Assembly (NCBI RefSeq): GCF_012223425.1
Contig: NZ_CP038798.1
Span: 124,001-188,000 of the forward strand
DNA length: 64,000 nucleotides
Direction: 5' to 3'
Origin: Mycolicibacterium frederiksbergense
GTDB taxonomy: Bacteria > Actinomycetota > Actinomycetes > Mycobacteriales > Mycobacteriaceae
The translations under genes were made by a program, and so were the position numbers. Each line of letters begins with the position of its first letter. Within the stretch, counting starts at the first letter, position 1. The notes beneath the pieces are model-generated. The model was not told the DNA's origin. It ran no database searches and was given only the letters and a program-made list of their open reading frames with translations. Of the stretch, positions 46,868 through 62,518 are shown in pieces.

Positions 46868-47179
46868 TTAAACGATCAGGTTGCCGACACCGCTGATCAT
46901 CGCGCTGCCATGCTCGTCGGCGCTGGACAGGATCTGGGCGTTGTTGCCCATCTTGTGCGAGTGGTCGGCGAAGGCGGTAGCGAACTGCTGACCCTGGTGT
47001 TGTAGCTGCTCGCCGACGTTCTGCATCGCCGTGCCTGCTCCACCTCGCAGCGCCGGGGCGAGCCCCTCCAACGTGCTGCCGAGCGACTTCATGATGGCGG
47101 CCTGCTGATCGGAGATCTCCTGCAGGCTGCCGGCGTCGCGGCCGATGGCCTCAATGTCGCCATGGATGGGTCCAGTCAT
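46868..47179 (-). CDS. EsxB-like WXG100-family protein lacking Trp and Tyr signature residues
   Basis: A 103-residue protein from the ATG at 47179 with AAGGAC upstream. It aligns with EsxB around LRGGAGTAMQNV (WRGAAGTAAQ in M. tuberculosis EsxB), so the WXG Trp is Leu. Its C-terminal ILSSADEHG lines up with the EsxB export signal QYSRADEEQ, giving Leu in place of Tyr in YxxxD/E. Despite both changes, gene pair, size and predicted hairpin agree with EsxB. It is the probable partner of the 96-residue Esx protein downstream (48-bp gap). Confidence 0.85.
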   Translation of the reverse strand: MTGPIHGDIEAIGRDAGSLQEISDQQAAIMKSLGSTLEGLAPALRGGAGTAMQNVGEQLQHQGQQFATAFADHSHKMGNNAQILSSADEHGSAMISGVGNLIV

Positions 47180-47264
47180 GGAATGTCCTTTCAAATAAGG
47201 GATTTGGTGAAACTGTTATGAGCCCAGGTGTGCGGATGTTCCGCATTGGGTGTGGACGTCGGTG

Positions 47265-48482
47265 TCACGTTGTTCGCTCGCCGACCCCCTCCCCCGGTCG
47301 GAAGACCGCCCCCCCGCCCCCGGTGATCACCGGAACCGCCGCGGGTGCCCGGTAGAGGGCCGCCAGCGAAGTCAGCGGTGTGTTCTTGCGCTTGGCTTCC
47401 TCTTTGTTCTGGTCCCCAGCGGCGGCGTGCCCCATCGGACCCATCATGGCTCCGCTGCTGCCCATCCCGGCGCCGCTGACTTGAGCGCCGGAAGCCAAGC
47501 GTGCTTCGTTGACGCGCGACAACGCGGACTCGGGCGTGGAGGACGCCGCGTTGATTGCCGGCGAGGAGCCAAAGCTGGCCGGTCCACGCAGAGCGCCGAT
47601 GCCGCCGCCGAGCCCGCCGCCGCCACCACCGGCGCCTCCTCCACCGACGAGGTTGGCCGCCACCGGCCCGCCAGCCGCGGGGGTGGCCGTGAGCCAGTCC
47701 GCGGTGGTGGCCGACGCCAGCGCATCGGCGGGATTGCCGCCCATGCCCCCTTGCAGAAGCGACATCAACGGCTGCATGGCCTGCTGAGGGAACTGGGACA
47801 AGCTACTGAGCGGTCCTCCCTGCCCCAGCTGGCCGGCCATGCCGCCGATCTGCCCCAGCGGACCCATGAACGCGTTCATCGCCCCTTCGCCGCCGCCACC
47901 AAGCAGGTCTGATGCCTTCTCTTGCGGTGCAGGCATCGACGGTGTGGCGCCGCCGGTGGCGGTAGCCGGGGGTGGAGGCGGCAACGGGGGCAGGGCCTGG
48001 ATCGGCATGGACGCCGCGGCGTACTCGTACTTGTTCGACGCCGCAGTCACCCACATCCGGCCGTAATTCGCCCGATTGACACCGATCGCGGGGGTGAGCA
48101 TGCCCAGGAAGTTGTTCGCTTGGAGCGTGCCGTGCTCCACCTGGTTCTCCCCGATTTCCCCCGGCGTAGGGGTGGCAGCCTTGAGGGTCTCGAACGCCAG
48201 GGCCACCTCGTGGATGACGGCTGCTTGGGCTTCGATCTGACCTGCCGCAGCGGCCTGCCAGAGCATCAACGGCACCTTCGACAGCACCGCGAGCTGACCG
48301 GTCGGGTCAGGCCACGACATGGCCAGGGCCGAGTTGATCGCTTCCTGACCTCCCAGGTTGGCGATCAGCCCCGCAGCCACGGCGACCAGATTCTCCGCGG
48401 CAGCCACGAAGCTGGACGAGCCAGGTCCGAACCAAAAGCCCGCACTGTTGAGCTCTGGTGGCTCCGCACCCCATTCAGGCAT
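47265..48482 (-). CDS. PPE family protein
   Basis: A 405-residue protein. Residues 1-165 are a PPE domain: WGAEPPELNSAGFWFGPGSSSF, SWPDPTGQL at the WxG-like position, QAAVIHEVALAFETLKAATPTPGEIGENQ, and NNFLGMLTPAIGVNRANYGRMW. The rest is Pro- then Gly/Met-rich and ends with RAPAAVPVITGGGGAVF. PPE proteins pair with a PE partner and are handed to EccC by EspG; the PE gene is immediately upstream (38-bp gap) and espG follows the esx pair. Confidence 0.93.
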   Translation of the reverse strand: MPEWGAEPPELNSAGFWFGPGSSSFVAAAENLVAVAAGLIANLGGQEAINSALAMSWPDPTGQLAVLSKVPLMLWQAAAAGQIEAQAAVIHEVALAFETLKAATPTPGEIGENQVEHGTLQANNFLGMLTPAIGVNRANYGRMWVTAASNKYEYAAASMPIQALPPLPPPPPATATGGATPSMPAPQEKASDLLGGGGEGAMNAFMGPLGQIGGMAGQLGQGGPLSSLSQFPQQAMQPLMSLLQGGMGGNPADALASATTADWLTATPAAGGPVAANLVGGGGAGGGGGGLGGGIGALRGPASFGSSPAINAASSTPESALSRVNEARLASGAQVSGAGMGSSGAMMGPMGHAAAGDQNKEEAKRKNTPLTSLAALYRAPAAVPVITGGGGAVFRPGEGVGERTT

Positions 48483-48520
48483 CGTGTGGCCTTAATTCCC
48501 CGTGATCAATCAGCGGTCGG

Positions 48521-48829
48521 TTAGAGGATTCCGCCGATGGCGGTGTAGTTCATCGCATCGGCGAGGTCTGTGATGACCGCTGAAGCGCCCATCGCGACGC
48601 CGTGCTCGGCATGGAACGCGGCACCGGCTTGGATGACCGCTGAGGCCTCCGTCGCCAGCGTCATGATCTTCGCGGCGTTGGCCGCGCTGATCTCCTCCAG
48701 GCCCGGGGGGACCACGGCCGCCGAGGCGGCGGCCTGGCCACCGTGCGCTGCGGCTTCACCGGCCAGGCCCGCGGCCGCGCCCGACGACCCAGTGACCGCT
48801 GCGGGCTCGATCATGATGAAAGGGTCCAT
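48521..48829 (-). CDS. PE family protein
   Basis: A 102-residue protein consisting of a PE domain only (MDPFIMIEPAAVTGSSGAAAG, VPPGLEEISAANAAKIMTLATEAS, AFHAEHGVAMGASAV). The canonical export motif after the second helix (AYASAEAAN type) reads ITDLADAMN here, with Thr in place of Tyr. AGGAG lies 7 bases before the ATG. It is the first gene of the PE-PPE-esx-espG unit and follows a promoter-like element at 48868-48888. Confidence 0.9.
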   Translation of the reverse strand: MDPFIMIEPAAVTGSSGAAAGLAGEAAAHGGQAAASAAVVPPGLEEISAANAAKIMTLATEASAVIQAGAAFHAEHGVAMGASAVITDLADAMNYTAIGGIL

Positions 48830-48867
48830 AGGAAACTCCTCACTTTCAGGTGGGACTGCTTTGCCGA

Positions 48868-48888
48868 CAGTCTATACACGACGAAGCA
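48868..48888 (-). promoter_or_regulatory. Promoter-like element upstream of the PE gene, shared with 58973-58993
   Basis: On the minus strand it begins TGCTT and ends GTGTATAGACTG. TAGACT matches the TANNNT -10 consensus, about 40 bases before the ATG at 48829. A 21-base stretch of equal length and largely the same sequence precedes the gene at 58933 at the same distance. Confidence 0.5.
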
Positions 48889-48896
48889 GATAACGG

Positions 48897-48910
48897 AACA
48901 CGTAAACGTC
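48897..48910 (-). promoter_or_regulatory. ACGTAAACGT-type element upstream of the PE promoter
   Basis: Minus strand GACGTTTACGTGTT, 12 of 14 bases identical to the element at 35887-35900, in the same orientation relative to the downstream gene. It lies just upstream of the -10 region and could be an activator or repressor site. Confidence 0.35.
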
Positions 48911-49019
48911 TGCTTGTTCACGAATCATGCAGTTTTCAACAGCAGTAGGCGGACACCGCCGTTTGCTACCTCCACGATACGGCCGTATTGACGTAGCCGA
49001 CGACACCAATTTCCGGGCA

Positions 49020-51974
49020 TCAGTCCACCGCCGGCGGGAGGGCAACCTGAATGAGCTGACCTCCTGCTTTGCGGAGATACAGTTCACCGCGGCCCGGGAT
49101 GCGCGCCGCCGGGCGGACCTGGTCGATGATGACTTCCTTCCTGTCACCGTCGAGCACCAACACCGACGTACCGCCGCGCTGCATCGCCTGGATGAGCTTG
49201 TTCGATCCGCCGCGGGCGTACCAGCCTTCGCTGGTCACCGACGCGATCACGTGCACGTCGAGGTTGCGTGCCGCCTCCACCGCCGGCATCAGCGGCTGCA
49301 GCACCGTGGTGGTGGGCCCATTGGGACTCAACGCCGTCAAGTCGTCGACCAGGATGAACCACTTGGGGCGCACAGGCTTCCAGTTCCTGAGCTGGCGAGG
49401 ATCCAGACCTTCCGGAGGGCGACGTTGCTCTAGCAACTGCGCGATCTGGGTCGCCGCAGTTCCGATCTTGGTGTGATCGGTCTCCCACACCGTGCGGTAC
49501 TCGTCGGCCAGGGCGTCACCGATCGAGAAGTCGGGGTCGAACATCATCACCTGGGCCTGATCCGGGGTGTAGGTCTCCATGATGGCCGCGCACACCGTCC
49601 GTAGGAACACGCTGCGCCCGGCCTTGGTGGTACCGGTGCAGAACGCGTGCGGGTAGAGCTCCAAATCCAGCCAGGCCGTGGACATGTCGCGCTCACCGAT
49701 ACCGATCCGCAGCGCATGCCGCGGCGCGGTGGCAGGCAGCGGCGCGAGGTCGGTGAAGGCCACCTCGGCGGGCAGCTGCTGCAGCTGTGGCGCAGGACCG
49801 AATCCCCGTTGAGCCCACTTCTGGGCGATCAGTGACGCCGTCGCCTCAGTGGCAGCCACCTCACCGCCGACGTGCGCGACCTTAGACACATAGGGCACCG
49901 CGACGAGCATGTGCTTACCCGGCTTGACCACCCCACGCCCCTTCTGGTCGTCGGGAACGGTCTTAGCCACCGCGCGGTCCATCAGCGAATCGTTGTTGTT
50001 GGCCAGGCGCAGCTCGACTTTGGAACCCAACTTCGATTCGGCCTTCATGCCCATCCAGCTGTCGTTGCTAATAAGGACGTGCACGCCGAAGTTCAGGGCT
50101 CCGTCGGCCAGCGCGTTGATCCGGTCGTGGATGGCAAGCAGTTCGGTTTTGATCGCCGTGATGTTGTCGACGACGAGGAACACGTCGCCGTGGCCGTCCT
50201 CGGGCACCGGTCGCCGAGTGGGGCCGAACTTGTTGTCGCGGAAGCGCGACAGATCCATCCCCGATTGCTGACCGTCAGCCGGGTCAACCCACCGCGTCCA
50301 GTCGCGCTTGCGGTTGCGCAGGATCCGCTCGACCTCGGAGACCACCCGCTGAATCTTCTCCTCGTCACCGGTGCCCGCGATGCCGCACACGTGCGGCAGC
50401 CCGGCCACGCTTTGCAGCTTGAGGCCGCCAAAGTCGATGCCGTAGAACTGGACCCGCTGAGGCGAGTTGGCGGCTGCCAGAGACATGATCACCGTGCGCA
50501 GCGCGGTCGACTTACCGGCCTGCGGGGCTCCCGCCACGCCGCCGTTGGTGTCGATGAGCGAGAGCGCCACGACGTCTTGGGAATGCTCGAACGGATCGTC
50601 TTCACGGCCGTACGGGGCGACCAAGCCAGAGTCCTCGGTGAACTCGTCCCACGGACGATTCCAGTATTCGCCCAAGATGACGTCGAGTGTCAGCGCGGTG
50701 GTGTCGTCGAGCGCGGGCCGCCACATGCGGTGACCGCGCGGCACGGTTCTGGCCGCCTCAGTCATTCGCTCGACCATCAGTTCAGCCACGGCGGGTGCGT
50801 CGGGTTCGGGTGTGGTGTCGAGCGCGAGCACCGCTTCCTCGTGCTCCAGGTCGCTTTCGTTGACCACGGTGTCGGGCAGGGGCGCCAGCACGCTACTGAA
50901 TTTGGTGACCGGCAGGTAATGCCCTTCGGTGCGATCGCGTTCTGTGGCATTCATTTTCGGGGCGATGAACTGCCCACTGGCATAGAAGCTGCGATAGCGC
51001 GTGTGATCACCATCGACGACGAGGAACGCCGAGCCTTGCGGGGCGTTCTTCAATTCTTCCCATGCTCGAGTAGAGCCGATCGCCGCGCGGGATTCGCCGG
51101 CATCCTTGACCTTGAGGCCGATGGCAAACGTTTGCTGGGCGATCATGCCGGCCATCTTGCCCACCTCCATGCGCTGGCTGGCGTTGAGGATGTGAATCCA
51201 CAGTGACCGGCCCAAGCGGGCGACCTCGTCCATCACCTTGGCCATCTCTGGCACCAACTCGAGCATTTGGGAGAATTCGTCGAGAACCAGCAGCAGGGCG
51301 GGAATCGGTTCCAGATCGGTGCGCCCCGAGGTCCTGGCTTTCTCATAGGACCGGACATTGGCGAACCCCGTGCGCCTGAGCAGCTCCTGGCGACGCTGCA
51401 ACTCACCGCGGAGCACCAGCTTGAAGCGGTCAAGCTTGTGCTGAGATTTCGACAGGTTCGAGATGATCCCGTCGCAGTGCGGCAAGAACTCCAGAGGCCC
51501 GAAGGCTGACTCGCCCTTGAAGTCTCCCAACAGGATACGAAGCTGCTCAGGAGAATGTGTCGCGCACAGAGCAAGCACGGTGGAGATCAGGTGCTCCGAC
51601 TTGCCCGAACCGGTCTGCCCCACCATCGACCCGTGCGGCCCAACTCCGTCCTCGGCGCCCTCCTTCATGTCCAGATACACCAGACGGCCATCGACGGCCT
51701 TGCCGATCGGCGCACGTAGCCGATTGGCCGGAGAGAGACTGTTCCAGTTCAGCGTCGGATTCCAGGTCCGCAGATCGTAGATCCCCAGCGCGTCGGTGAA
51801 GTCCTGCCCGGCGCGGGCCTCCTCAGCGTTCTTGGCCAGTAGCGATTCGGCCTCGTCGGTGGGGGTGAACCCCGCCAGCGCCCGCGCCAGCGCTTCGGCC
51901 TCGTAGATCGGCATGATGTCGGGTTGGGCGGCGAACCGCAGACCCGTGGGCATCGACCGGGTGACTACAACCAT
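49020..51974 (-). CDS. eccCb: EccCb, FtsK/SpoIIIE-type ATPase with three ATPase domains
   Basis: A 984-residue protein with three FtsK-like domains: Walker A GQTGSGKS near residue 118-125 with LLLVLDEFSQML, GAPQAGKS near 482-489 with DVFLVVDNITAIK, and GTTKAGRS near 781-788 with WFILVDDLTAL. The third Walker A has Arg instead of the catalytic Lys. EccC is the motor of ESX secretion, and its last domain binds the substrate signal. In the ESX-1 split form EccCb holds only two domains; here all three are in EccCb. The ATG shares one base with the EccCa stop (TGATG). Confidence 0.95.
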   Translation of the reverse strand: MVVVTRSMPTGLRFAAQPDIMPIYEAEALARALAGFTPTDEAESLLAKNAEEARAGQDFTDALGIYDLRTWNPTLNWNSLSPANRLRAPIGKAVDGRLVYLDMKEGAEDGVGPHGSMVGQTGSGKSEHLISTVLALCATHSPEQLRILLGDFKGESAFGPLEFLPHCDGIISNLSKSQHKLDRFKLVLRGELQRRQELLRRTGFANVRSYEKARTSGRTDLEPIPALLLVLDEFSQMLELVPEMAKVMDEVARLGRSLWIHILNASQRMEVGKMAGMIAQQTFAIGLKVKDAGESRAAIGSTRAWEELKNAPQGSAFLVVDGDHTRYRSFYASGQFIAPKMNATERDRTEGHYLPVTKFSSVLAPLPDTVVNESDLEHEEAVLALDTTPEPDAPAVAELMVERMTEAARTVPRGHRMWRPALDDTTALTLDVILGEYWNRPWDEFTEDSGLVAPYGREDDPFEHSQDVVALSLIDTNGGVAGAPQAGKSTALRTVIMSLAAANSPQRVQFYGIDFGGLKLQSVAGLPHVCGIAGTGDEEKIQRVVSEVERILRNRKRDWTRWVDPADGQQSGMDLSRFRDNKFGPTRRPVPEDGHGDVFLVVDNITAIKTELLAIHDRINALADGALNFGVHVLISNDSWMGMKAESKLGSKVELRLANNNDSLMDRAVAKTVPDDQKGRGVVKPGKHMLVAVPYVSKVAHVGGEVAATEATASLIAQKWAQRGFGPAPQLQQLPAEVAFTDLAPLPATAPRHALRIGIGERDMSTAWLDLELYPHAFCTGTTKAGRSVFLRTVCAAIMETYTPDQAQVMMFDPDFSIGDALADEYRTVWETDHTKIGTAATQIAQLLEQRRPPEGLDPRQLRNWKPVRPKWFILVDDLTALSPNGPTTTVLQPLMPAVEAARNLDVHVIASVTSEGWYARGGSNKLIQAMQRGGTSVLVLDGDRKEVIIDQVRPAARIPGRGELYLRKAGGQLIQVALPPAVD

Positions 51975-53140
51975 CAGTGAACCTCCTGACCAGCGGCCTT
52001 GAGTAGATTGATCGTGCCGTTCTCGTCGGCGGCCACGAAGAACGCCGTGGTGCCGTTGGCCAGCACGCTTTGTTCGTTGCCGGTGGCTTCCAAGACCGAA
52101 ACCCCCAGTCGCCCTTGTACACCGAGGATCGGTGAGCAGTCCGCCTCGGGCAGGTCGACGACAACGACCAGGTAGCTGTCCGGCGTCGCAACGCCGTCCT
52201 GCCGAGGCTGGAACGGACCCCGTTGGGACAGCGATTCACCGAAGCGCTCCATGAAGGACGGCACGTCGGGGAACATGAGCCGCACCGGGCCACAGGCGTC
52301 GACGAACTCGCCATCGCCGGTATGCGGCAGCCACTTCGCCCACTCCCACGACTCTTCGTCGTCGGAAATGATGGCGAGCTTGACGTCGTCAGGGCCATGG
52401 AACACGCACAGTTGACAAATCATCGAGCGCAACAAACCTTGGACGGTGGACCGCATCTGCGGCTCGGCGAAGTATGCCCACCCCATCTGATCGAACAGGT
52501 GCAGCGGGCGGGGCACATCGTGCACCACGTTTTGGGCGACGAGCAGATCCCGCACGGCGACCGTGGTCACAGTCTCCCGAAACTCCGGGGGCGGAACCTT
52601 TGTCGGCGGTACCAGTTTCGTCTTGAGTCGGGTCACCCCCAACCCGAGACGGACATGACCAAAATTGCGCTCATTGGGGGTGCGCTCCCACATGCGTCCG
52701 GTGCCGATCAGCGTCGCCAAGGAACCATTGGTGGGGTCTGGATGGTGGTAGCAAATCTCGGTCGCCTGCGCGCGGCCGGCGGCGTGAATCTTGAGCCGCT
52801 GCTCGTCGAGGGTCCTCAAATTGTCGGCGCGGTCCTGATTGATGGCGGCGCCATGGTCCTTCTTTCCGCTGCCACCCATTCGGCCCCGGACAATTCCCAT
52901 CAGCGAGATCAGCATCACCGGCAACAGGAAGAACGAGCCAGTCGAAAGTTGGCGGGCGCCAGAGAGATACAGCATCACCATCAGGCCCACCGCCGCTCCG
53001 ACGAAGATCAGAATCCACACCCACATCGGCGGCTTGGTCGGCGTCGGACGGCTGATCTCGCACGGATCGGGCAGTTCGATCGCGTCTTCTTGGACAGAGG
53101 GTTTGCCAACTTGTTGGCGGATGAACCCGATGCGGCTCAC
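51974..53140 (-). CDS. eccCa: EccCa, membrane-anchored N-terminal half of EccC
   Basis: A 388-residue protein from the GTG in the GTGA overlap with eccB. Two membrane helices (MWVWILIFVGAAVGLMVMLYL, FFLLPVMLISLMGIVRG) are followed by the stalk and DUF domain of EccC (IHAAGRAQATEICYHHPDP, LGLGVTRLKTKLVPP, DVKLAIISDDEESWEWAKWLPHTGD). It has no Walker A. The protein stops just before the point where unsplit EccC proteins run on into the first ATPase domain (EAEALAR), which is supplied by EccCb. The two chains must assemble non-covalently in the ESX membrane complex. Confidence 0.94.
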   Translation of the reverse strand: MSRIGFIRQQVGKPSVQEDAIELPDPCEISRPTPTKPPMWVWILIFVGAAVGLMVMLYLSGARQLSTGSFFLLPVMLISLMGIVRGRMGGSGKKDHGAAINQDRADNLRTLDEQRLKIHAAGRAQATEICYHHPDPTNGSLATLIGTGRMWERTPNERNFGHVRLGLGVTRLKTKLVPPTKVPPPEFRETVTTVAVRDLLVAQNVVHDVPRPLHLFDQMGWAYFAEPQMRSTVQGLLRSMICQLCVFHGPDDVKLAIISDDEESWEWAKWLPHTGDGEFVDACGPVRLMFPDVPSFMERFGESLSQRGPFQPRQDGVATPDSYLVVVVDLPEADCSPILGVQGRLGVSVLEATGNEQSVLANGTTAFFVAADENGTINLLKAAGQEVH

Positions 53141-54651
53141 TGGCCCGGTCCTTTCGTGGGTGCCTGCAACGCGGCGGCATTGGGATCGGGCGCAAAGCTG
53201 CTGCCGTGCTGGGCCATGGCCGCGTCCTTGGTCAGCGCGGGTCCCGCCGGAAGCCACTTGATCACCGCCCACGGCGCCGGGGTGGGTGAGGCGGCCTTGA
53301 GTCCCAGCGACTCCCGGCTCTGATCGTTTCCGCCACCGGTCGGTACGCCAAAGCGCGCGCCGTCGTTCCCGATGAACCACAGGCTTTCCCCGCGCACCGA
53401 ATCCGGCTGGACGCCGGTCACCTGAACGAAGTTGGCGGACTCCGGGTCGACGTAGACCCCATCGGCCGTGTTGTCCCCGGAACTGACGAAGGGCACCACG
53501 CGGTTCTCATCACCCACCGGGATCGGCAAGCGCCGTCCCGAGATCGTGCTCACCTGGGCCTGCGGCTCACCGTTGGTCTTGCGCCACATCACGCACGTCA
53601 CCGGCTCAGCAGCCTTGTCCAGCAACTGCACCAGACCCGTCGGATAGACCGAGGTGTCGAAACCCACCGCTTGGGGCATCCCCGTCAAGGCCGTCGACTT
53701 GGCCTGCATGACCTGTGCCCCTGGCACCACCGCGGCGTTGATGATCATGGTGGCCACCGTCTTCGGGACGCGCTGCACCCCAGCAGGTAGCGCGACGAAG
53801 AACTGCGGATCGCCGGTCACGTCAGACACGCGCATCACGCTGCCCGACACCAGCGGCAGGTCAGCGGTGCTGTAGCTGACCGGTCCACCGGGAGTGGGAA
53901 TCGCCGGTACCCGCACCGGCGCCGTGGGTGTCAACGCCTCGTACAGTGCCCGTGACATCGCCGCCGGATGCAGGTCACCGACGGGCAACCCCAGTGCCAG
54001 GGTCACCGGCTTGTCTGCAAGGTCGATCTCCGAGCGGTGCCCGTCAGTGACCAGGAAGGTTGCGCCGCCGTAGGTCATCAGCGCCACCTGCGGGGAATCA
54101 ATCGTGTGTGCCCAGTCGCCGAGATCGGCCAAACCGTCGATCACGGTCACCTTCGGCACCACCTGAGATCCCTGCGAACCCAGACGATCGCACAGCGCCC
54201 ACCCGGTGTCCCCGGGCGTGCGCACCGTCAGATCATTTGGTGCGCCTTGAATGCCGAGCGTCGGGCCCACCGGCGCCTTGAGAATTTCGCTCATGGGTAC
54301 CAGCGTCGGATCGGCCGCCTGACCGGTGATCAGCCGGGCCGAGGCCTTGTTCAGCACCGGGTGCATCACACCGCCGACTTGGACGTAAAAGCCGCCGCCG
54401 CCGCGTGCTTCGACGAACTCGGACTTTCCGATCTGTCCGATCGGCTTGATGAAGGCCACGATGGCGCAGATCCCCACGATGGCTACCGCGGCCACGAGCC
54501 CCACCATCAGAGCCGCCGCCGAGTTCTTCGACGGATCGTGCACCAGCCGCACGTTGCGTCGACCGATCCCTACCGAAATACGATGCCGCAGAAAACGCCA
54601 CGCTGAAACCTGCTCCAGCGATGCGTAATTCAAACCGCCACGTCGTGCCAT
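53137..54651 (-). CDS. eccB: EccB, type VII secretion membrane component
   Basis: A 504-residue bitopic protein with GGAGGGG upstream. The start is typical (SLEQVSAWRFLRHRISVGIGRR), then one membrane helix (AALMVGLVAAVAIVGICAIVAFIKP) and a long periplasmic domain with repeats and the conserved Cys pair (WALCDRLG, VTCVMW). EccB stabilises the ESX complex on the periplasmic side. It begins the core ecc series; two putative hydrolase genes lie just upstream. Confidence 0.96.
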   Translation of the reverse strand: MARRGGLNYASLEQVSAWRFLRHRISVGIGRRNVRLVHDPSKNSAAALMVGLVAAVAIVGICAIVAFIKPIGQIGKSEFVEARGGGGFYVQVGGVMHPVLNKASARLITGQAADPTLVPMSEILKAPVGPTLGIQGAPNDLTVRTPGDTGWALCDRLGSQGSQVVPKVTVIDGLADLGDWAHTIDSPQVALMTYGGATFLVTDGHRSEIDLADKPVTLALGLPVGDLHPAAMSRALYEALTPTAPVRVPAIPTPGGPVSYSTADLPLVSGSVMRVSDVTGDPQFFVALPAGVQRVPKTVATMIINAAVVPGAQVMQAKSTALTGMPQAVGFDTSVYPTGLVQLLDKAAEPVTCVMWRKTNGEPQAQVSTISGRRLPIPVGDENRVVPFVSSGDNTADGVYVDPESANFVQVTGVQPDSVRGESLWFIGNDGARFGVPTGGGNDQSRESLGLKAASPTPAPWAVIKWLPAGPALTKDAAMAQHGSSFAPDPNAAALQAPTKGPGQ

Positions 54652-54676
54652 CTCCCGAACCCCTCCGAACTATTGT

Positions 54677-55744
54677 CTATGCCGCGCGTCTGATCTCGAA
54701 CCCACCAGAGGGCCACTTGCCGATCCGCACGTTCTGTCCCCGGCTCGGGGCTTCAATCGTTTGGTGATCGTTCATCACCAGCTGCACGTGCTGCCACTCG
54801 CCGTCGCGCCTGTTGCACAACAAGATGTCACCAGGCCTGGCATCTTCTGGGCGCACGCGCACGCCCCAATCGGTCATGTCGTAGGTGGTACGCGGAATCT
54901 TGATCCCCGCCTGCGAATAGGCGTATTGCACCAGGCCGGAACAATCCAATCCCTTGCCCGGCGTGGTACCACCCCAGGCGTACGGGACCCCCAGCTGCGA
55001 CAACGCTGACTTCACGATCCGATCACCCTGCGGCCCGCCAGTACCAGCAATATCCGACCCGGCGGCACTGCCCGCGTGCGCTCCGATGCCCTGCTGGGCT
55101 TGGCCTGCTCCACCGCCGCCACCGCCGAGAAGGTTGCTCAGCATCCCCAGGGGAGCCATCGGCATTGCGCCCATGGGCATTCCGCCGCCCATGCCGCCGC
55201 CGCCCATCGGCATCTGCGGCATCTGCGGCATCATCGGCATCATCGTTGCGGCCCCGCCTGGCGGTCGACCAATGCTCTGGTAGCCCGCCGCGGTGGTGTC
55301 GGCGGCCGCGGCGTGCGTCGAGGCGTCGTTGCCGCCCTGATCGAGGGTGGACTTGGTGTCTTCGAGGTGACGTTTGATCGCCAAGACCAGGGCCTGCTGA
55401 CCAGCTGGGGTGTTGACTGCCAACCCTTTTGACTGCACGTCGGCCACCGCGGCGGCGATCACGGCATCCATGCGCCCGCGCGACGCGCCCGCTGAGGCCA
55501 CCGCCGCTTCGAGGTCGCCCTTGCCTGCTGCGTCGTGTTCGGCCAGGGCCTCAAGATGATTGACGACCACGCCGGACTCGTCGGCGAATCCGTCGGCGGC
55601 CCTACCGGAGCCGTCACCGGTACGGTCCGGGACGGTGGGAAGTTCCGGAGGTGGCGCCAACGCCAGCCCGCCACCCGTGCCGAAGCTCTCCCGAGCCATG
55701 CCCATCGCCGCACCCGCAGCCCGCACAAACCCCTCAACACTCAT
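54677..55744 (-). CDS. DUF4226-type protein with C-terminal NlpC/P60 peptidase, putative exported hydrolase
   Basis: A 355-residue protein with GGAGGGG before the ATG at 55744. Residues 1-194 are identical to those of the next gene upstream: a helical hairpin (VNHLEALAEHDAAGKGDLEAAV..NTPAGQQALVLAIKRHLEDTKSTLDQ) and a Met/Gly/Pro linker. The C-terminus is an NlpC/P60 domain with catalytic Cys in LDCSGLVQYAYSQAG and His in GEWQHVQLVMND, preceded by LGVPYAWGG. NlpC/P60 enzymes cut D-gamma-glutamyl-diaminopimelate bonds in peptidoglycan. No Sec signal is present, so export through the ESX system via the N-terminal domain is inferred. It ends 25 bp before eccB. Confidence 0.88.
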   Translation of the reverse strand: MSVEGFVRAAGAAMGMARESFGTGGGLALAPPPELPTVPDRTGDGSGRAADGFADESGVVVNHLEALAEHDAAGKGDLEAAVASAGASRGRMDAVIAAAVADVQSKGLAVNTPAGQQALVLAIKRHLEDTKSTLDQGGNDASTHAAAADTTAAGYQSIGRPPGGAATMMPMMPQMPQMPMGGGGMGGGMPMGAMPMAPLGMLSNLLGGGGGGAGQAQQGIGAHAGSAAGSDIAGTGGPQGDRIVKSALSQLGVPYAWGGTTPGKGLDCSGLVQYAYSQAGIKIPRTTYDMTDWGVRVRPEDARPGDILLCNRRDGEWQHVQLVMNDHQTIEAPSRGQNVRIGKWPSGGFEIRRAA

Positions 55745-55751
55745 CGAAGCC
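55162..55751. repeat. 590-bp perfect direct repeat, copy 1
   Basis: By eye this stretch is identical to 56354-56943 (offset 1192 bp). It covers the first 194 codons of the NlpC/P60 gene plus 7 upstream bases. Complete identity, including synonymous sites, implies recent duplication or ongoing gene conversion. Confidence 0.93.
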
Positions 55752-55775
55752 CCCTCCACGGCGTTGTGACCGGCA

Positions 55776-56936
55776 TCAGTAACCACCCGGGGCGTGGCGC
55801 GGATTGAATTGCCCCACCACCGACAAGTTCGATCCGTCGCGCGCCACGTGGTAGCGGCGCATCAGATAGTTCATCGCGGCAGTGATGTTGGCGACCGGGT
55901 CGTAGATATTGCGCGACGTACCGGGCTGGTGGTTGGACGCGAACGTCGCCGGAATCGTCTGCAACCCACCCCGTGACGCCCCGGCCGGAGCACCGTCGGC
56001 CATCCGAGCTCCATGGGCGTTGGAGTCGCTGAGGTTCACCGCATCCGGGTGAAACCCGGACTCGCGCGCCAACCCCGTCATCAACCCACGCGTCCAGTTG
56101 GCGCGTGCGGTGGGGTCAGTGACACCCATCGTGTCGAGGGCCTTGCCAAGGTACTGGCGGTAAGCCTCCGGGCCGCCGGGGAAGCCCTGCTTGGCCAGAT
56201 TGACCTGCCCAACGGGGATCGCAGCGGCATCCGTGCGGTTCTCCACACCCGCCCCCGCGCTGGCACCAACTCCGCTTTCGGAGCCCACGACGGACCCGGT
56301 GCTAGGTGAGACCTGTTGGCCGAGAAGGTTCGTCAGTCCACCCAGCGGGCCGAGCATTGCGCCCATGGGCATTCCGCCGCCCATGCCGCCGCCGCCCATC
56401 GGCATCTGCGGCATCTGCGGCATCATCGGCATCATCGTTGCGGCCCCGCCTGGCGGTCGACCAATGCTCTGGTAGCCCGCCGCGGTGGTGTCGGCGGCCG
56501 CGGCGTGCGTCGAGGCGTCGTTGCCGCCCTGATCGAGGGTGGACTTGGTGTCTTCGAGGTGACGTTTGATCGCCAAGACCAGGGCCTGCTGACCAGCTGG
56601 GGTGTTGACTGCCAACCCTTTTGACTGCACGTCGGCCACCGCGGCGGCGATCACGGCATCCATGCGCCCGCGCGACGCGCCCGCTGAGGCCACCGCCGCT
56701 TCGAGGTCGCCCTTGCCTGCTGCGTCGTGTTCGGCCAGGGCCTCAAGATGATTGACGACCACGCCGGACTCGTCGGCGAATCCGTCGGCGGCCCTACCGG
56801 AGCCGTCACCGGTACGGTCCGGGACGGTGGGAAGTTCCGGAGGTGGCGCCAACGCCAGCCCGCCACCCGTGCCGAAGCTCTCCCGAGCCATGCCCATCGC
56901 CGCACCCGCAGCCCGCACAAACCCCTCAACACTCAT
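55776..56936 (-). CDS. DUF4226-type protein with C-terminal lytic transglycosylase (SLT) domain
   Basis: A 386-residue protein whose residues 1-194 are identical to the NlpC/P60 protein. After a short Ser/Gly linker the C-terminal 150 residues look like a soluble lytic transglycosylase: WTRGLMTGLARESGFHPDAVNLSD (ES motif with the catalytic Glu), GGLQTIPATFA, ANITAAMNYLMRRY. Such enzymes cleave the MurNAc-GlcNAc bond. Together with the neighbour it offers glycan and peptide cutting under one targeting domain. The ATG at 56936 has only a weak GGTGG before it, because the upstream sequence diverges from copy 1 at this point. Confidence 0.86.
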   Translation of the reverse strand: MSVEGFVRAAGAAMGMARESFGTGGGLALAPPPELPTVPDRTGDGSGRAADGFADESGVVVNHLEALAEHDAAGKGDLEAAVASAGASRGRMDAVIAAAVADVQSKGLAVNTPAGQQALVLAIKRHLEDTKSTLDQGGNDASTHAAAADTTAAGYQSIGRPPGGAATMMPMMPQMPQMPMGGGGMGGGMPMGAMLGPLGGLTNLLGQQVSPSTGSVVGSESGVGASAGAGVENRTDAAAIPVGQVNLAKQGFPGGPEAYRQYLGKALDTMGVTDPTARANWTRGLMTGLARESGFHPDAVNLSDSNAHGARMADGAPAGASRGGLQTIPATFASNHQPGTSRNIYDPVANITAAMNYLMRRYHVARDGSNLSVVGQFNPRHAPGGY

Positions 56937-56943
56937 CGAAGCC
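56354..56943. repeat. 590-bp perfect direct repeat, copy 2
   Basis: Identical to 55162-55751. It covers the first 194 codons of the transglycosylase gene plus 7 upstream bases. The break points fall in the linker codons and at GAAGCC before the start codon. Confidence 0.93.
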
Positions 56944-57057
56944 ACCCACGAGCGCGAAAGACGTTGGTCGACAACCTGATCCGACGGCACGCGTCATCAC
57001 GCCAGGTCATCTCACACCTGCCCTCCACGGATCTCACCCACGCTCTCTACGCAGCAC

Positions 57058-57324
57058 CTACGACGACGACGGAGCAGGCGGCGTGACCGGCGGGACCGGC
57101 GCGGCCGGAGGGACCGGCGCGGCCACCGGGGCAGGCTCAGCCGCCTTGGCGGCCTGCGCACTGGGATCCATCCATCCCAGGAAGTCCGGGCTCGACCCCA
57201 CGCTCGACAACGGCTGAACCTGTCCGGACACCAACACCTTGCCGCTGCCCAGAGCCATCACCAGGTGGTCCTGCCACACACCTACGTCGCCGGCCTGCAA
57301 CTTGGTGGGGGGAATCGGATTCAT
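57058..57324 (-). CDS. Small ESX-associated protein, partner of the DUF4226 protein
   Basis: An 88-residue protein starting in an ATGA overlap with the preceding gene. The core TKLQAGDVGVWQDHLVMALGSGKVLVSGQVQPLSS..FLGWMDP matches a small beta-rich module often found at the C-terminus of ESX-associated DUF4226 proteins. A Pro/Ala-rich tail follows. The tight coupling suggests it is a detached C-terminal module of the DUF4226 protein encoded just upstream. The 114-bp spacer after it shows no clear terminator. Confidence 0.72.
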   Translation of the reverse strand: MNPIPPTKLQAGDVGVWQDHLVMALGSGKVLVSGQVQPLSSVGSSPDFLGWMDPSAQAAKAAEPAPVAAPVPPAAPVPPVTPPAPSSS

Positions 57325-58625: not shown

Positions 58626-58642
58626 TGCGGTGACGTCCCTTC

Positions 58643-58933
58643 TTAGAAATTCAGCTTGAGTTCGGCGGCGGCCACGTCCTTGGGGTCCGGATAGTGGCCG
58701 TCAATGTTGGGCTGGTTCGACAAGTAGCGGTCATGGGCTACATCGGCGACCGCGACCACCCGGTCACCCAAGGTGTAGGCATCCCAGCGCCGGACCACAT
58801 CAGAGAGCAAACGAACTCCCACGACGCACCCGTTGTCGCCCACCTCCACAGCCAAGCTGCGCTTGGCGGACACCGCCGAGGCGACCACGCGAACATCCGG
58901 GACTGCCGCTTCGTCCTCAGCAAGGTCTTCCAC
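58643..58933 (-). CDS. EspD/YbaB-like small cytoplasmic protein
   Basis: A 96-residue protein starting at GTG 58933, chosen for AAAGGGG 6 bases upstream. The sequence SAKRSLAVEVGDNGCVVGVRLLSDVVRRWDAYTLGDRVVAVADVAHDRY matches the pattern of small ESX-associated proteins such as EspD (DUF2694) or YbaB-fold EspL: a strand, a glycine turn, a strand and a long helix. Such proteins stabilise or regulate Esp substrates inside the cell. It follows the shared promoter-like element by 40 bases and would head the transcript containing the DUF4226 genes and eccB. Confidence 0.65.
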   Translation of the reverse strand: MEDLAEDEAAVPDVRVVASAVSAKRSLAVEVGDNGCVVGVRLLSDVVRRWDAYTLGDRVVAVADVAHDRYLSNQPNIDGHYPDPKDVAAAELKLNF

Positions 58934-58972
58934 CGCTGCCCCTTTCGAGCGCTCAAACGAACCAATATCACG

Positions 58973-58993
58973 CAGTCTACACACACATAAGCA
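58973..58993 (-). promoter_or_regulatory. Promoter-like element upstream of the EspD/YbaB-like gene, shared with 48868-48888
   Basis: On the minus strand it begins TGCTT and ends GTGTGTAGACTG; TAGACT fits a -10 box and lies about 41 bases before the GTG start, nearly the same distance as in the PE promoter copy. TTCACG 16 bases upstream of TAGACT could be the -35 box. Confidence 0.5.
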
Positions 58994-59064
58994 ATCGTGA
59001 ACAGTGATGATGCAATGCGTGTTGATGGCGCGCCCACACCGCACGGCGAAGGCGACAGAACAGC

Positions 59065-61629
59065 TCAAGCAGGCATGGCGCTAACCTGTTGCTCAATAGC
59101 GCTGACCATCGAGGTCACCACGGCCCCAAAGCCCGCCTGAACACCGCAATAGGCGATGTCGGCCAACGACGGCGGGCTTGCCTTCCACGCGCGGACCATC
59201 TCGACAACCCGGCCCGCGCAGTAGTAGTGCCGGTACCAAAGCGTCAGCGCCTCAGTCAGTTCCGAACCATCGTGATCGATCGGAGCGTGCGAGTCCGGCG
59301 AGACCAGGGCGCCATCGTCGCGTCGGTCGGCCAACTCGTCATAGAGCTTCCACGACACGGCGTCTGCGCTCCCGCGCTGCACCGACTGCAGAATGTTGAT
59401 CTCGTCGTCGGTCACCAGCTTGTGGCCGGTCGCATCCGGCTGCGCCGCCGCTTGGACAACGGCCGCAGTCAGCTGTGCCGCCGCGTACAAAGACACGTCT
59501 CGGCCCCGGCAGATTGCCGAAACGCGGTGCGCCAGAACCGGATCGAGAACGGTCAACCGATGCTGATGGGCGCCGTCCAGCGTCGGTGCAACGCTCGCCA
59601 TGCCAAGAGCCTGCCGATGCTGCACACCCAGGAAGTCCGACACCCCGGCTGGCTCCTGCGGCCACAACTCTGTGGTGACCATGGCCGAAAGCGATGCTCC
59701 TGCAACCCTTCTGCTGAATTGCTCGAAGTGGTCAGCCAGAATCTTCGACGGCTTCTGGCAGCCCATCCACCGCTGGGCCATCCCGAACGGCAAGGCTGGA
59801 TCCGCCACTGCCAAACGCGCAGTCGCAGGCAGGAAGACAGTTGAAGGCACATACGCACCACCGCCGAGGCTGCTGGCAATCACCACTTGCGAACCCATCG
59901 AAGTCTTGACCACTCCGACAGCCCACGCGATCGGCGCCGGCCAATCCTCACATCCACGAACCAACCCACCCAGCACCCGCTGAGCCAACAGCAGGTCAGG
60001 GTTCACTTCACTGGTCATCGCGGCGATTCCTGGCGCCGACACCGTCGAACCGGCCCCTCCAGCCACCATGGGAGCTGGCGCGCCTGCCCCAGTCCCTGCA
60101 CTCGAGGACTGCGTAGACGACGTCGCAGGAGCGGTCCCGGCGCCGCCACCGGGAGAGCCGCCCGCGCCTGCCCCCGGTGCACTGTAGGGAGCCATCGGTG
60201 CAGCGCCGCCCATCGCTCCGGGAGGCATCATCGACGTGCCGCCTCCCGGCGGGGTGCTCGCTCCACCAGCTGACGAGCCGCCAGGGGAACCCCCGACACC
60301 CGCATCGCCCCCTGGCGCCGACAACGGCGCCCCGGCCGGGCCACTCCCAAATGCCGGAGCGGCACCGGCGACCTGATGAGGGGCCAGTCCCTGCTGCGAC
60401 ACTGACTGCTGAGACAGCGGAGAACCCATCCCCGACCCACCAGTAGCACTCATGCCCGACGCCAGGCCTGACTGGAAACTCGATCCCGGATTCGTCATCG
60501 GAGAGGCCGCGGACGATGAAGACGGCGCCGATGGCATCGAGGACGCAGGAGAAGTCGGCATCGACGACGACCCCGACCCCATGCTCGACGACGACGCCGA
60601 CCCCATGCTCGACGACGGCTTCAAAGCCGAACCCAGGCCCGACATCCCCGAACCGCCACCACCGCCACCGCTACCGCCACCACTCTGGCCACCACCAGCG
60701 GCACCGCCCATCGCCTGAGGCAACTGGCTGAGCATCGAGGGTGTGCCCTGGCCCACCGGCGTTTGCGCCCCATCGGCTTGCGGTGCAGCTGGCTGTTTGA
60801 TGTCGCCCTGCGCTGCATCAGGCGTTGCGCTGGGAGGTTTGGTCGGGTCCGAAGTGGCGGGCTTGGTGCCAGTTTGCGACCCATCGGGAGCGGCGCTGCC
60901 GTCCTTTTCACCGTCCTTGTGGTCTCCGGCACCGGGGTCTTTGCCGTCTTTCCCCGATTCCGTCTGCTGCCCGTCCTTACCCGCTGGAGTCTTTGGGAGA
61001 TCGAGCGGGATGTCGAAGCTCGCGGCTTGAATGGAACCTGTTGCTTTGGCGATGGCTTCCGAGGTGGATGTTTCAGCTAGTCCGTTGTAGCGCGTCCACA
61101 CGTCCGCTGCGGCAAGAGGATCGCGGTTTCGGATGGCGGTGTTGAATTCTTCCTCACCGGCTTCTGCGAGGTTGTCGATGCGCCCTTGCAACCCCTTGAT
61201 ATGGCCTAGTGCTTGTGCGGCTGCGGTGGCTGCCGCACTGTGCTTGTCCTGGTGATCACTCCATGTCTTGACGGTGGAGTCGTGCGCTGCCAACAGAGCG
61301 TCGCCGGCCTCGCCGGTCAGTGCTCCGGCGAATCGCGGGCGGTAGTGATCGTAAGAAGTGTCGACGGCGTCGCCGAGGGTTTGGGCGAAGTCTTGGTGAA
61401 ACTGATGGATGTCCTCGAACGACGTGCGTAGCGTTTCCGCTGGTCGCCAGGCCTGCTTCAGAGCTTGACCGAACTCTCCGCTCCCGAGCTCAGAGCCTGC
61501 CTGTTTAGCGACTGACGCGGCTTTCGTCGCAGCGCTGACGCCGCTGGTATAGAGCTGGCGTCCGATATGCGTGCCTGCTGCCGCTGCCGCCGCCGCTCCT
61601 TCGCTAGCGCCCCCGGCCCCTGAATCCAC
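59065..61629 (-). CDS. EspK-like ESX-associated protein with long low-complexity middle
   Basis: An 854-residue protein from a GTG with GGGAG upstream. The N-terminal 190 residues are helical and PPE/EspK-like (FEDIHQFHQDFAQTLGDAVD, LTGEAGDALLAAHDSTVKTWSDHQDKHSAAATAAAQAL). Residues about 205-555 are Pro/Gly/Ser/Met-rich and disordered. The C-terminal 300 residues form a folded part (NPDLLLAQRVLGGLVRGCEDWPAPIAWAVGVV, YVPSTVFLPATARLAVADP, ITDDEINILQSVQRGSADAVSWKLYDEL) like the paired DUF5632/DUF5631 domains of EspK. EspK-type proteins assist or accompany PPE-like Esp substrates. It is four bases after the upstream gene. Confidence 0.8.
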   Translation of the reverse strand: MDSGAGGASEGAAAAAAAGTHIGRQLYTSGVSAATKAASVAKQAGSELGSGEFGQALKQAWRPAETLRTSFEDIHQFHQDFAQTLGDAVDTSYDHYRPRFAGALTGEAGDALLAAHDSTVKTWSDHQDKHSAAATAAAQALGHIKGLQGRIDNLAEAGEEEFNTAIRNRDPLAAADVWTRYNGLAETSTSEAIAKATGSIQAASFDIPLDLPKTPAGKDGQQTESGKDGKDPGAGDHKDGEKDGSAAPDGSQTGTKPATSDPTKPPSATPDAAQGDIKQPAAPQADGAQTPVGQGTPSMLSQLPQAMGGAAGGGQSGGGSGGGGGGSGMSGLGSALKPSSSMGSASSSSMGSGSSSMPTSPASSMPSAPSSSSAASPMTNPGSSFQSGLASGMSATGGSGMGSPLSQQSVSQQGLAPHQVAGAAPAFGSGPAGAPLSAPGGDAGVGGSPGGSSAGGASTPPGGGTSMMPPGAMGGAAPMAPYSAPGAGAGGSPGGGAGTAPATSSTQSSSAGTGAGAPAPMVAGGAGSTVSAPGIAAMTSEVNPDLLLAQRVLGGLVRGCEDWPAPIAWAVGVVKTSMGSQVVIASSLGGGAYVPSTVFLPATARLAVADPALPFGMAQRWMGCQKPSKILADHFEQFSRRVAGASLSAMVTTELWPQEPAGVSDFLGVQHRQALGMASVAPTLDGAHQHRLTVLDPVLAHRVSAICRGRDVSLYAAAQLTAAVVQAAAQPDATGHKLVTDDEINILQSVQRGSADAVSWKLYDELADRRDDGALVSPDSHAPIDHDGSELTEALTLWYRHYYCAGRVVEMVRAWKASPPSLADIAYCGVQAGFGAVVTSMVSAIEQQVSAMPA
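60575..60622. repeat. 24-bp tandem repeat, two units, in the EspK-like gene
   Basis: Two near-identical 24-bp units, each starting GACCCCATGCTCGACGACG, encode Ser/Met repeats (SSSMGS) of the low-complexity region. They are likely prone to length change by slippage. Confidence 0.7.
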
Positions 61630-61632
61630 CAG

Positions 61633-62226
61633 TCAGCTCCCGTACGCCCTGCACAGATCCCAAACCTTTTGATCCGCATCGTTGGCTGCGGCTGCAGTCC
61701 AGCTGGTTGGAGGCTGGATTGCTCCTCGAGTCGCCTCGCCACTTGCGGATGCGGCGTGCTCACGCAGCAGGTTCAGGCTTTGGGTCACGGCGTCACGAAT
61801 GGAGCCGTCGGCACTGGGGTTATCGCGAATTGCGTCCGCAATAAAGTTCGCCGTTGGGATTACGTCAAAGCCGGTGTTTTGTGGTGACGGCATGGCTCGG
61901 TATCCGGCGGCGAAGCGGGTGCAGAGGTCGATCGTGGCTGCGCTCACCTGCGCGGTCGTGGGTGCCGGCGGTGTGGCAGCAGGTGGTGGCGAGGCCGTGG
62001 TGGTGCCTGCCATGTGGTTGCCGATGAGGCCGCCGACTACACCGGCGGTGAGCGCGACAGCGACGGCACCGCCGATGATTGCCGCGATCAGGCCACCCTT
62101 GCGCTTCCGTGGAGCTGGCGCGGGGTAGAACGGCGGCATCTGCGGGTTAGGCGGTGCGGGGGGCATGGCGCCAGGGCCGACCGGGTAGGCAGCTGCGGGA
62201 GGCGGGTAGGTGAATTGGTCGGTCAT
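61633..62226 (-). CDS. Pro-rich single-span membrane protein of the ESX locus
   Basis: A 197-residue protein. The first 45 residues are Pro-rich (PPFYPAPAPRKRKGG) and cytoplasmic; one membrane helix follows (LIAAIIGGAVAVALTAGVVGGLIG). The outer part has two Cys residues (IDLCTRFAAGY, VWDLCRAYG) suited to one disulfide and helices like small mycobacterial exported proteins. The family is common in mycobacterial ESX-type regions; its job is unknown. Confidence 0.75.
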   Translation of the reverse strand: MTDQFTYPPPAAAYPVGPGAMPPAPPNPQMPPFYPAPAPRKRKGGLIAAIIGGAVAVALTAGVVGGLIGNHMAGTTTASPPPAATPPAPTTAQVSAATIDLCTRFAAGYRAMPSPQNTGFDVIPTANFIADAIRDNPSADGSIRDAVTQSLNLLREHAASASGEATRGAIQPPTSWTAAAANDADQKVWDLCRAYGS

Positions 62227-62230
62227 GGTG

Positions 62231-62518
62231 TTAGACCTCGATTCCCGCGATGTGCGTGGCGTTGGTTTCGTCGCTGCTGGTCATGATTGCCGAGGTCCCG
62301 CCGTTGGCAGTGGCCACTCCGCTGACGTCAGTGGCTCTTTTGGCGGTCATTGCTTCATGGGCTGCAGGCCAGTCGGTGACTGCTGCACTCAGCGCCACCG
62401 ACATCGGATCAGCACCGGCTGCACAGATGGGGTGCACGGCGGGCTGTGTGGGGGCAGCAGAAAACCACCCGCCCGTGGTCGACGCCAGGTCGGGGACGTC
62501 ATTATGGATCGCAGCCAT
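62231..62518 (-). CDS. EspC-like small ESX substrate
   Basis: A 95-residue protein of the size and order of EspC (ESX-1 secreted, PE/WXG100-like fold): short N-terminus, helix (PMSVALSAAVTDWPAAHEAM), turn and helix (ATDVSGVATANGGTSAIM). The end IMTSSDET lines up with the EspC export signal IYSEADEA, with Met replacing Tyr. The Gly-Trp pair near residue 17-18 is not at the usual WxG place. It lies five bases before the Pro-rich membrane protein gene and 78 bp after the EspL-like gene. Confidence 0.65.
   Translation of the reverse strand: MAAIHNDVPDLASTTGGWFSAAPTQPAVHPICAAGADPMSVALSAAVTDWPAAHEAMTAKRATDVSGVATANGGTSAIMTSSDETNATHIAGIEV

What the first reader, a model, noticed from the sequence alone, without database searches (positions are those of the whole stretch)
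46868..62518. Tyr of the YxxxD/E export signal is replaced in several ESX substrates
The general signal of mycobacterial type VII substrates is YxxxD/E after the second helix. Aligning by motif context, the Tyr position is Leu in the EsxB-like protein (ILSSADE, versus QYSRADE), Met in the EspC-like protein (IMTSSDE, versus IYSEADE) and Thr in the PE protein (ITDLAD, versus AYASAE). It is also Leu in the distant PE-like/PPE-like protein at 16977-18497 (TLSGQDEAN). The acidic residue is kept each time. Consistent loss of Tyr in four candidate substrates suggests a plasmid ESX with altered signal specificity, perhaps to avoid cross-talk with chromosomal ESX systems.
Basis: partly seen in the sequence, partly recalled or inferred. 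Interest (0 to 1): 0.78.

Follow-up and report, generated by a model that had tools for sequence, protein, structure and literature searches.

The report
Plasmid export signals without the tyrosine
A likely plasmid of a mycobacterium carries a protein-export system whose likely exported proteins lack the tyrosine thought essential to the export signal but keep its acidic and mostly its oily residues, so its machine likely does not need that tyrosine.

Summary
In the window's EsxB-like, PE, EspC-like and PE-PPE-like proteins the Tyr place of YxxxD/E is Leu, Thr, Met and Leu; the acid is kept. It is a lineage trait: in 29 related loci Tyr is absent from 23/23 EsxB-like, 18/18 EspC-like, 18/18 first-gene and 19/19 EspB-like proteins and present in 2/26 PE; the acid is kept in all. 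The residue 11 after the Tyr place is hydrophobic in 83/83 aligned sequences. This is the WXG100 pattern HxxxD/ExxhxxxH (without its weak +7 residue) with Tyr swapped out.

The reading as altered specificity against cross-talk is not supported. Tyr went, most simply, stepwise: EsxB-like first (also in four other ESX systems, two on named plasmids), PE later, at least twice. Two loci pair a Tyr PE with a Tyr-less EsxB-like protein. Published swaps show YxxxD/E does not set system specificity (PMC5311947). Most likely this machine reads acid plus hydrophobic helix face and no longer requires Tyr. Export is untested.

The parts
46868..47179 (-). EsxB-like (CFP-10-side) WXG100 protein, 103 aa, Tyr-less signal
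   Evidence: ORF; WXG100 24 bits, E 4.7e-5, below the 27.3 cut-off; same place in five named plasmids; helical hairpin model, Foldseek best CFP10-ESAT6 3fav_C, E 0.054
46895..46930 (-). signal helix of the EsxB-like protein: L84 (Tyr place), D88, I95 (+11)
   Evidence: alignment A1: position 0 = L17 F1 I1 M1, D88 20/20, +11 I/L 20/20
48521..48829 (-). PE protein, 102 aa
   Evidence: PF00934 24.7 bits, over the 22 cut-off; AlphaFold2 pLDDT 89.4, helix 49-101
48536..48571 (-). signal helix of PE: T87 (Tyr place), D91, I98 (+11)
   Evidence: A2: position 0 = T13 V3 M2 Y2 L1, D91 21/21, +11 I/L/M/V 21/21; register to PE8/PE25
62231..62518 (-).
   Evidence: ORF; only a weak PE match, E 0.09; 18 hits in 29 loci
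62249..62284 (-). signal helix: M79 (Tyr place), D83, I90 (+11)
   Evidence: A3: position 0 = L8 M3 I2 F1 T1; D/E 15/15; I 15/15
16977..18497 (-). second PE-PPE (EspB-like) protein, 506 aa, away from the cluster
   Evidence: PPE E 4.8e-16, EspB_PPE E 7.9e-7, EspB_fam E 1.2e-6, far below its cut-off; matches the HMM of the cluster's EspB-like gene, E 3.7e-9
18234..18269 (-). signal helix: L77 (Tyr place), D81, I88 (+11)
   Evidence: A7: position 0 = L12 I2, D 14/14, I 14/14
46529..46819 (-). EsxA-like WXG100 partner, 96 aa; WXG is FXG; C-terminal MxxxD...QY
   Evidence: PF06013 38.9 bits; FXG in 23/23 rows
47265..48482 (-). PPE protein, likely partner of the PE
   Evidence: PF00823 E 6.6e-29
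49020..51974 (-). EccCb with all three ATPase domains (984 aa)
   Evidence: TIGR03925 E 1.3e-149 plus TIGR03924 positions 356-673
51974..53380 (-). EccCa ORF (start not fixed): N-terminal part of EccC, split before ATPase1
   Evidence: TIGR03924 positions 3-344 of 673
53137..54651 (-). EccB
   Evidence: PF05108 E 3.8e-123
45501..46439 (-). EspG chaperone
   Evidence: PF14011 E 8.3e-20

Best explanation
In this largely plasmid-borne ESX lineage the likely substrates carry the general type VII signal helix (hydrophobic residue, acid at +4, hydrophobic at +11) with a non-Tyr residue in the Tyr place, and the export machine likely recognises the acid and the hydrophobic helix face and no longer requires the aromatic Tyr. 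Shown: five substrate families lack Tyr across the lineage (two of 83 aligned sequences excepted) and keep the acid and the +11 residue; on the tree Tyr was lost, most simply, first from EsxB-like and Esp-type proteins and later, at least twice, from PE. Inferred: these proteins are exported by this system; the relaxed Tyr requirement lies in the machine and came first, after which PE Tyr drifted to Thr, Val, Met or Leu. Inferred: sorting to this system comes from its own EspG (acting on PPE) and from the EsxB-like tail with hydrophobics at +11/+14/+17, rather than from the Tyr place.
For: Tyr absent in 23/23 EsxB-like, 18/18 EspC-like, 18/18 first-gene, 19/19 EspB-like and 24/26 PE, acid kept in all (recount 107). 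In 83 aligned distinct sequences: acid 83/83, +11 hydrophobic 83/83, Tyr 2/83. 61 PE relatives: T30 Y17 M5 S3 L3 V1 G1, one gap; 46 EsxB-like relatives: L40 F3 I2 A1, no Tyr. EccCb tree: one clade of 29 rows (100/100) in two halves, each with basal Tyr-PE members; PE Tyr needs at least 3 changes over 32 rows, 2 within the clade alone, and the Tyr rows do not group (AU p 0.0004). Mixed loci L097 and L111 have a Tyr PE and an Ile or Leu EsxB-like protein. The pattern matches HxxxD/ExxhxxxH at 0, +4 and +11 (PMC3935865). M. abscessus EsxT, reported as an ESX-4 substrate, carries that motif (PMC9401124). The EsxB-like tail keeps +11 I/L, +14 I/V, +17 L/M/F in 20/20.
Against: No secretion was measured. 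Papers citing Daleke 2012 call YxxxD/E absolutely required or essential in mycobacteria (PMC6954902; PMC10117145). Thr in PE is not hydrophobic, so most PE do not fit the hydrophobic pattern, and Thr dominates in both halves of the clade, which plain drift does not explain. L096, a basal member, has Tyr in both PE and EsxB-like, so on the tree either EsxB-like Tyr was lost several times or L096 regained it. No change in EccCb was found that could account for a relaxed requirement. 3 of 46 EsxB-like relatives lack the acid in the aligned column (P0100, P0101, P0104; at least two of these look misaligned). One of 61 PE relatives has Ala there (P0060, also odd).
Confidence: 0.66

Rival explanations
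1. One reading: the plasmid ESX changed its signal specificity, so that chromosomal ESX machines ignore its substrates and vice versa.
For: Elsewhere in the same genome YxxxD/E is kept in all 6 PE-model matches (2 of them below the cut-off) and in 8 of 18 WXG100 matches outside this contig; the other 10 are EsxA-side, ESX-4, PPE or unclear proteins. PE of seven other ESX systems examined keep Tyr.
Against: YxxxD/E does not set system specificity (PMC5311947). Replacements are many, not one code. Two loci mix a Tyr PE with a Tyr-less EsxB-like protein. EsxB-like proteins of four other ESX systems also lack Tyr while their PE keep it, among them the system on contig C2 of this very genome.
Confidence: 0.12
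2. The Tyr-less proteins are no longer the signal carriers: another partner (a Tyr-bearing PE, or the EsxA-like protein with its C-terminal MxxxD...QY) supplies the signal.
For: M. marinum PE35 lacks YxxxD/E because PPE68 pairs with another PE (PMC9765416). The EsxA-like partner keeps an Asp and a C-terminal QY in all 23 rows shown.
Against: Acid and +11 residue stay invariant in the Tyr-less proteins. Neither of the 2 PE-model matches on the window's contig bears Tyr. Five families would have to have swapped carriers.
Confidence: 0.1
3. Neutral decay: the signals are dead or dying on a dispensable plasmid system.
For: The Tyr place is variable, above all in PE (T, V, M, L, S, G, Y).
Against: Acid 83/83 and +11 83/83 among proteins down to 19% (EspC-like), 30% (EsxB-like) and 32% (PE) identical to the window copy. 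Same gene order from eccB to the EspG gene in five named plasmids.
Confidence: 0.05
4. Misalignment: a nearby Tyr takes the role, as in the PE stretch DAMNY.
For: The window PE has Tyr at +8 from the Thr.
Against: Tyr stands there in only 7 of 21 PE sequences and in the window has no acid four residues on. Relatives with Tyr carry it in the Thr column, and the solved-structure profiles give the same register.
Confidence: 0.02

Closest known systems
Mycobacterial YxxxD/E general type VII signal (Daleke 2012: not read, recalled and via citing papers)
   Same: Place in the C-terminal part of the second helix, acid at +4, hydrophobic at +11, proteins of the EsxB, PE and EspB types
   Different: Tyr absent in the five substrate families of this lineage (2 of 83 aligned sequences keep it)
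HxxxD/ExxhxxxH pattern of WXG100 proteins (PMC3935865, passages), as in Bacillota EsxA and M. abscessus ESX-4 EsxT (PMC9401124, passages)
   Same: Hydrophobic at the Tyr place, acid at +4, hydrophobic at +11. Bacillota EsxA (3zbh) has Leu in the same column
   Different: Here it also covers PE, EspB-like and EspC-type substrates of a PE/PPE-bearing ESX; PE mostly uses Thr; the weak +7 residue is not kept
ESX-P systems of mycobacterial plasmids, P1-P5 (PMC4791881, passages)
   Same: Plasmid-borne, complete ESX with EspG, PE and PPE
   Different: EccC split before ATPase1, unlike ESX-1; assignment to P1-P5 not tested; that text has no hit for YxxxD or motif
M. marinum PE35 lacking YxxxD/E (PMC9765416, passages)
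   Same: A PE next to its ESX machine without the Tyr motif
   Different: There a partner swap explains it; here the acid and +11 are kept and all examined substrate families are affected

Membership tests
Mycobacterial ESX (type VIIa) system | EccC with three FtsK-type ATPase domains | tested here: met
   FtsK_SpoIIIE, 3 stretches; TIGR03924/TIGR03925
Mycobacterial ESX (type VIIa) system | Esx pair, PE, PPE, EspG and EccB in one cluster | tested here: met
   by Pfam in the window; EccD, EccE and MycP only as annotated in the syntenic plasmids
YxxxD/E signal bearer | Tyr at position 0 | tested here: not met
   L, T, M, L in the window proteins; 2 of 83 in the lineage alignments
YxxxD/E signal bearer | Asp or Glu at +4 | tested here: met
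   83 of 83
HxxxD/ExxhxxxH pattern | hydrophobic at 0 | tested here: inconclusive
   69 of 83 hydrophobic, Tyr included; the other 14 are Thr, 13 of them PE. Met for the four non-PE families (61 of 62), not met for most PE (8 of 21)
HxxxD/ExxhxxxH pattern | hydrophobic at +11 | tested here: met
   83 of 83
HxxxD/ExxhxxxH pattern | less conserved hydrophobic at +7 | tested here: not met
   +7 is Asn in 31 and Ala in 28 of 83; a large hydrophobic (Val) in 2
CFP-10/EsxB subfamily | WXG100 fold with Trp-x-Gly | tested here: inconclusive
   WXG100 model 24 bits, below the 27.3 cut-off; helical hairpin, best Foldseek CFP10-ESAT6 at E 0.054, none below 0.001; no Trp in the window protein
PE family | PF00934 over the cut-off | tested here: met
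   24.7 against 22 bits
EspC family (for 62231-62518) | PF10824 match | tested here: not met
   no match at E 1 or better; the first gene of the cluster matches PF10824 over the cut-off in L002 only, of three tested
Substrate of this ESX | export depends on this EccCb | not testable with these tools
   no secretion data

The most novel reading that the evidence does not exclude
A plasmid-borne ESX lineage has rewritten the general type VII export signal into a Tyr-free code (oily or Thr - x3 - acid - x6 - oily) in every substrate family, PE included, by stepwise and repeated loss. Its cargo would be invisible to Tyr-demanding chromosomal ESX machines in the same cell, while its own machine still accepts Tyr: one-way insulation of a mobile secretion system.
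Probability: 0.17. Interest if true: 0.75.

Novelty: new variant of a known kind. Interest (0 to 1): 0.5.

Why it matters
What reads YxxxD/E is open: the solved EccCb1-EsxB complex does not touch the motif's acid (PMC6954902). A natural PE/PPE-bearing ESX that likely works without Tyr separates the roles of Tyr, acid and tail, and the basal loci with Tyr give built-in comparisons. It also warns that searching for ESX substrates by YxxxD/E at the C-terminal site would miss nearly all substrates examined in this lineage.

Tried and rejected
EccCb receptor change tracking PE Tyr: 10 EccCb columns separate the four Tyr-PE rows from the rest. Replacing Tyr row L062 by its Tyr-less sister L068 gives 13, so the signature is basal divergence, not Tyr. 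Rejected.

W-Y covariation between Esx partners: EsxA-like WXG is FXG in 23/23 clade rows, basal L096 keeps both Trp and Tyr, and the own C2 system has Phe with Leu. But the Tsukamurella plasmid has Trp without Tyr, the own ESX-4 Trp without Tyr, and L081 Phe with Tyr. Dropped.

Comparators L069-L077 gave no PE or EsxB-like hit beside EccC except L072 (E 0.0001 and 0.004) and weak hits at E 0.1 or worse, so they inform the tree only; L071 was used through its contig neighbours. The M. arabiense region showed no annotated Esx or PE gene. The M. arenosum locus (L051/L092) gave no PE or EsxB-like hit; in M. szulgai (L047/L088) the PE lies about 9 kb from EccCb.

Foldseek gave no match with E below 0.001 for either model. 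The EsxB-like model is of middling confidence (pLDDT 77).

Papers: passages only of PMC3935865, PMC4791881, PMC5452490, PMC5311947, PMC9765416, PMC10117145, PMC9401124; PMC6954902 passages and section 7. Daleke 2012 is not held and was not read. The listings (capped lists, open-licence PMC only) showed no title or abstract on Tyr-less signals of plasmid ESX.
Full report
What is there. The window lies on a 268-kb contig (C3) of a four-contig genome; its relatives are mycobacterial plasmids, so C3 is likely a plasmid. It carries most of an ESX (type VII) cluster on the minus strand: EccB, a split EccC, PE, PPE, EsxB-like, EsxA-like and EspG, in the order seen on five named plasmids: M. intracellulare pFLAC0070_1, M. 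aubagnense, M. riyadhense, M. dioxanotrophicus and M. chelonae pMchErm55 (typed mobilizable in two, non-mobilizable in three). The four proteins of the finding exist at the stated places, and the Tyr place is Leu, Thr, Met and Leu with Asp four residues on.

Lineage. EccCb searched in 396 genomes of the window's genus gives 26 long loci in 25 genomes at 866 bits or more; the next match has 518 bits (a 331-aa fragment in G254 was not counted). I fetched 23 of the 26; the others are the window itself and two already held as named plasmids. A scan of GTDB genome contigs gave 25 loci, largely the same genomes, among them M. szulgai, M. gordonae, M. sphagni, M. nebraskense and Mycolicibacter acidiphilus.

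Counts. In 29 loci (window with its contig, 5 plasmids, 23 genome loci, several cut by contig ends) HMM hits were EsxB-like 23, PE 27 (one cut before the motif), EspC-like 18, first-gene target 18 (two in one locus), EspB-like 19 (one being window 16977-18497). Tyr at the site: 0/23, 2/26, 0/18, 0/18, 0/19; acid in all (recount of four families). In alignments of distinct sequences (20 of 20 EsxB-like, 21 of 22 PE with the cut one left out, 15 of 16 EspC-like, 14 of 17 EspB-like, 13 of 17 first-gene; the dropped rows were chosen by eye as near-duplicates or long variants, and all lack Tyr too) position 0 is hydrophobic in 69 of 83 including two Tyr, Thr in 14; the acid is 83/83; +11 is I, L, M, V or F in 83/83; +8 is Ala in 53 of the 62 non-PE sequences. 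Database relatives: 61 PE (T30 Y17 M5 S3 L3 V1 G1, one gap) and 46 EsxB-like (L40 F3 I2 A1; acid in 43 of 46) (for PE only the 7990 candidates sharing most words were scored).

Register. Tyr-bearing PE relatives carry Tyr in the Thr column. Profiles align Thr with the Tyr of PE8 (E 7e-7) and PE25, and Leu with the Tyr of EsxB (E 0.015, weak); Bacillota EsxA has Leu in that column. In the models the site lies in the long second helix (PE pLDDT 89; EsxB-like pLDDT 77).

History. The EccCb tree puts 29 rows in one clade (100/100) of two halves (97/93, 98/96). PE Tyr is kept in L062/L097 (basal in one half) and in L096, L059/L100 and L111 (basal in the other). Parsimony needs 3 changes over 32 rows, 2 over the 27 clade rows, and the Tyr rows do not form a group (AU p 0.0004; the group was named after seeing the tree and included L053, whose PE is cut). 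Given Tyr outside, PE lost it at least twice, most simply three times. EsxB-like Tyr is absent throughout except in L096, whose YNSQE sits one residue off the column and was found by reading. The Tyr-PE genome G032 has Tyr-less EspB-like and first-gene proteins on other contigs (4 of 4).

Outside the clade (small sample; motifs partly read by eye; [quoted passage not shown] PE keep Tyr in 7 of 7 systems: own ESX-1, own ESX-3, own C2 contig, G242:C14, G372, a Tsukamurella and a Nocardia plasmid. EsxB-like proteins keep it in 3 of these 7 (ESX-1, ESX-3, G372). At least one Esx protein of each of four Streptomyces plasmid systems keeps YxxxE. So Tyr-less EsxB-like proteins occur in other PE/PPE-bearing ESX systems, whereas among the loci examined here Tyr-less PE was seen only in this lineage (M. 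marinum PE35 is a published case outside it). Within the own genome, all 6 PE-model matches and 8 of 18 WXG100 matches outside C3 carry YxxxD/E; the 2 PE-model matches on C3 do not.

Mechanism. The acid and the +11 hydrophobic lie on one helix face, as proposed for all WXG100 proteins (PMC3935865, passages). In ESX-1 the ATPase3 pocket binds +11, +15 and +17 and does not touch the acid (PMC6954902, section 7; offsets counted by me). Here the EsxB-like tail has I/L at +11, I/V at +14 and L/M/F at +17 in 20/20, a different spacing. M. abscessus EsxT, reported as an ESX-4 substrate, carries HxxxD/ExxhxxxH (PMC9401124). The likeliest reading (inferred) is that this lineage's machine requires acid plus hydrophobic face and tail, not Tyr. 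Stepwise loss and mixed loci (L097, L111) speak against a coordinated new code. [quoted passage not shown] Why PE settled on Thr in both halves is unexplained.

Verdict. A new variant of a known signal; export untested.

Noticed in passing
window 54677-55786 and 55776-56990 (-): Two neighbouring genes (NlpC/P60 and SLT transglycosylase ends) share a 97.8% identical 631-bp first half, while the window's halves are only about 67-73% identical to those of the other plasmids where an alignment was found. In all six plasmids compared the within-plasmid copies are 92-100% identical: concerted evolution, likely gene conversion.
   Followed up: partly
window 49020-53380 (-): EccC is split between its N-terminal part and ATPase1 (not between ATPase1 and ATPase2 as in ESX-1); 25 of 26 clade loci have EccCb frames of at most 1104 aa (one of them cut by a contig end), G090 has one of 1735 aa.
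   Followed up: partly
window 46529-46819 (-): The Trp of WXG is Phe in the EsxA-like partner in 23 of 23 rows; basal L096 keeps Trp.
   Followed up: partly
L083 (own contig C2, 98131-111046): The same genome holds another ESX on contig C2 (341 kb), whose EccC is 82% identical to that of an M. avium plasmid, with a Tyr PE and a Tyr-less EsxB-like protein.
   Followed up: partly
window 16977-18497 and L113 (G213:C97:50290-50589): A second PE-PPE protein away from the cluster has a 507-aa counterpart on the ESX contig of G213, so it may be a regular cargo of these elements.
   Followed up: no
L088 (M. szulgai) and L092 (M. arenosum): In M. szulgai the PE lies about 9 kb downstream of EccCb; in M. 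arenosum no PE or EsxB-like gene was found within 10 kb.
   Followed up: no
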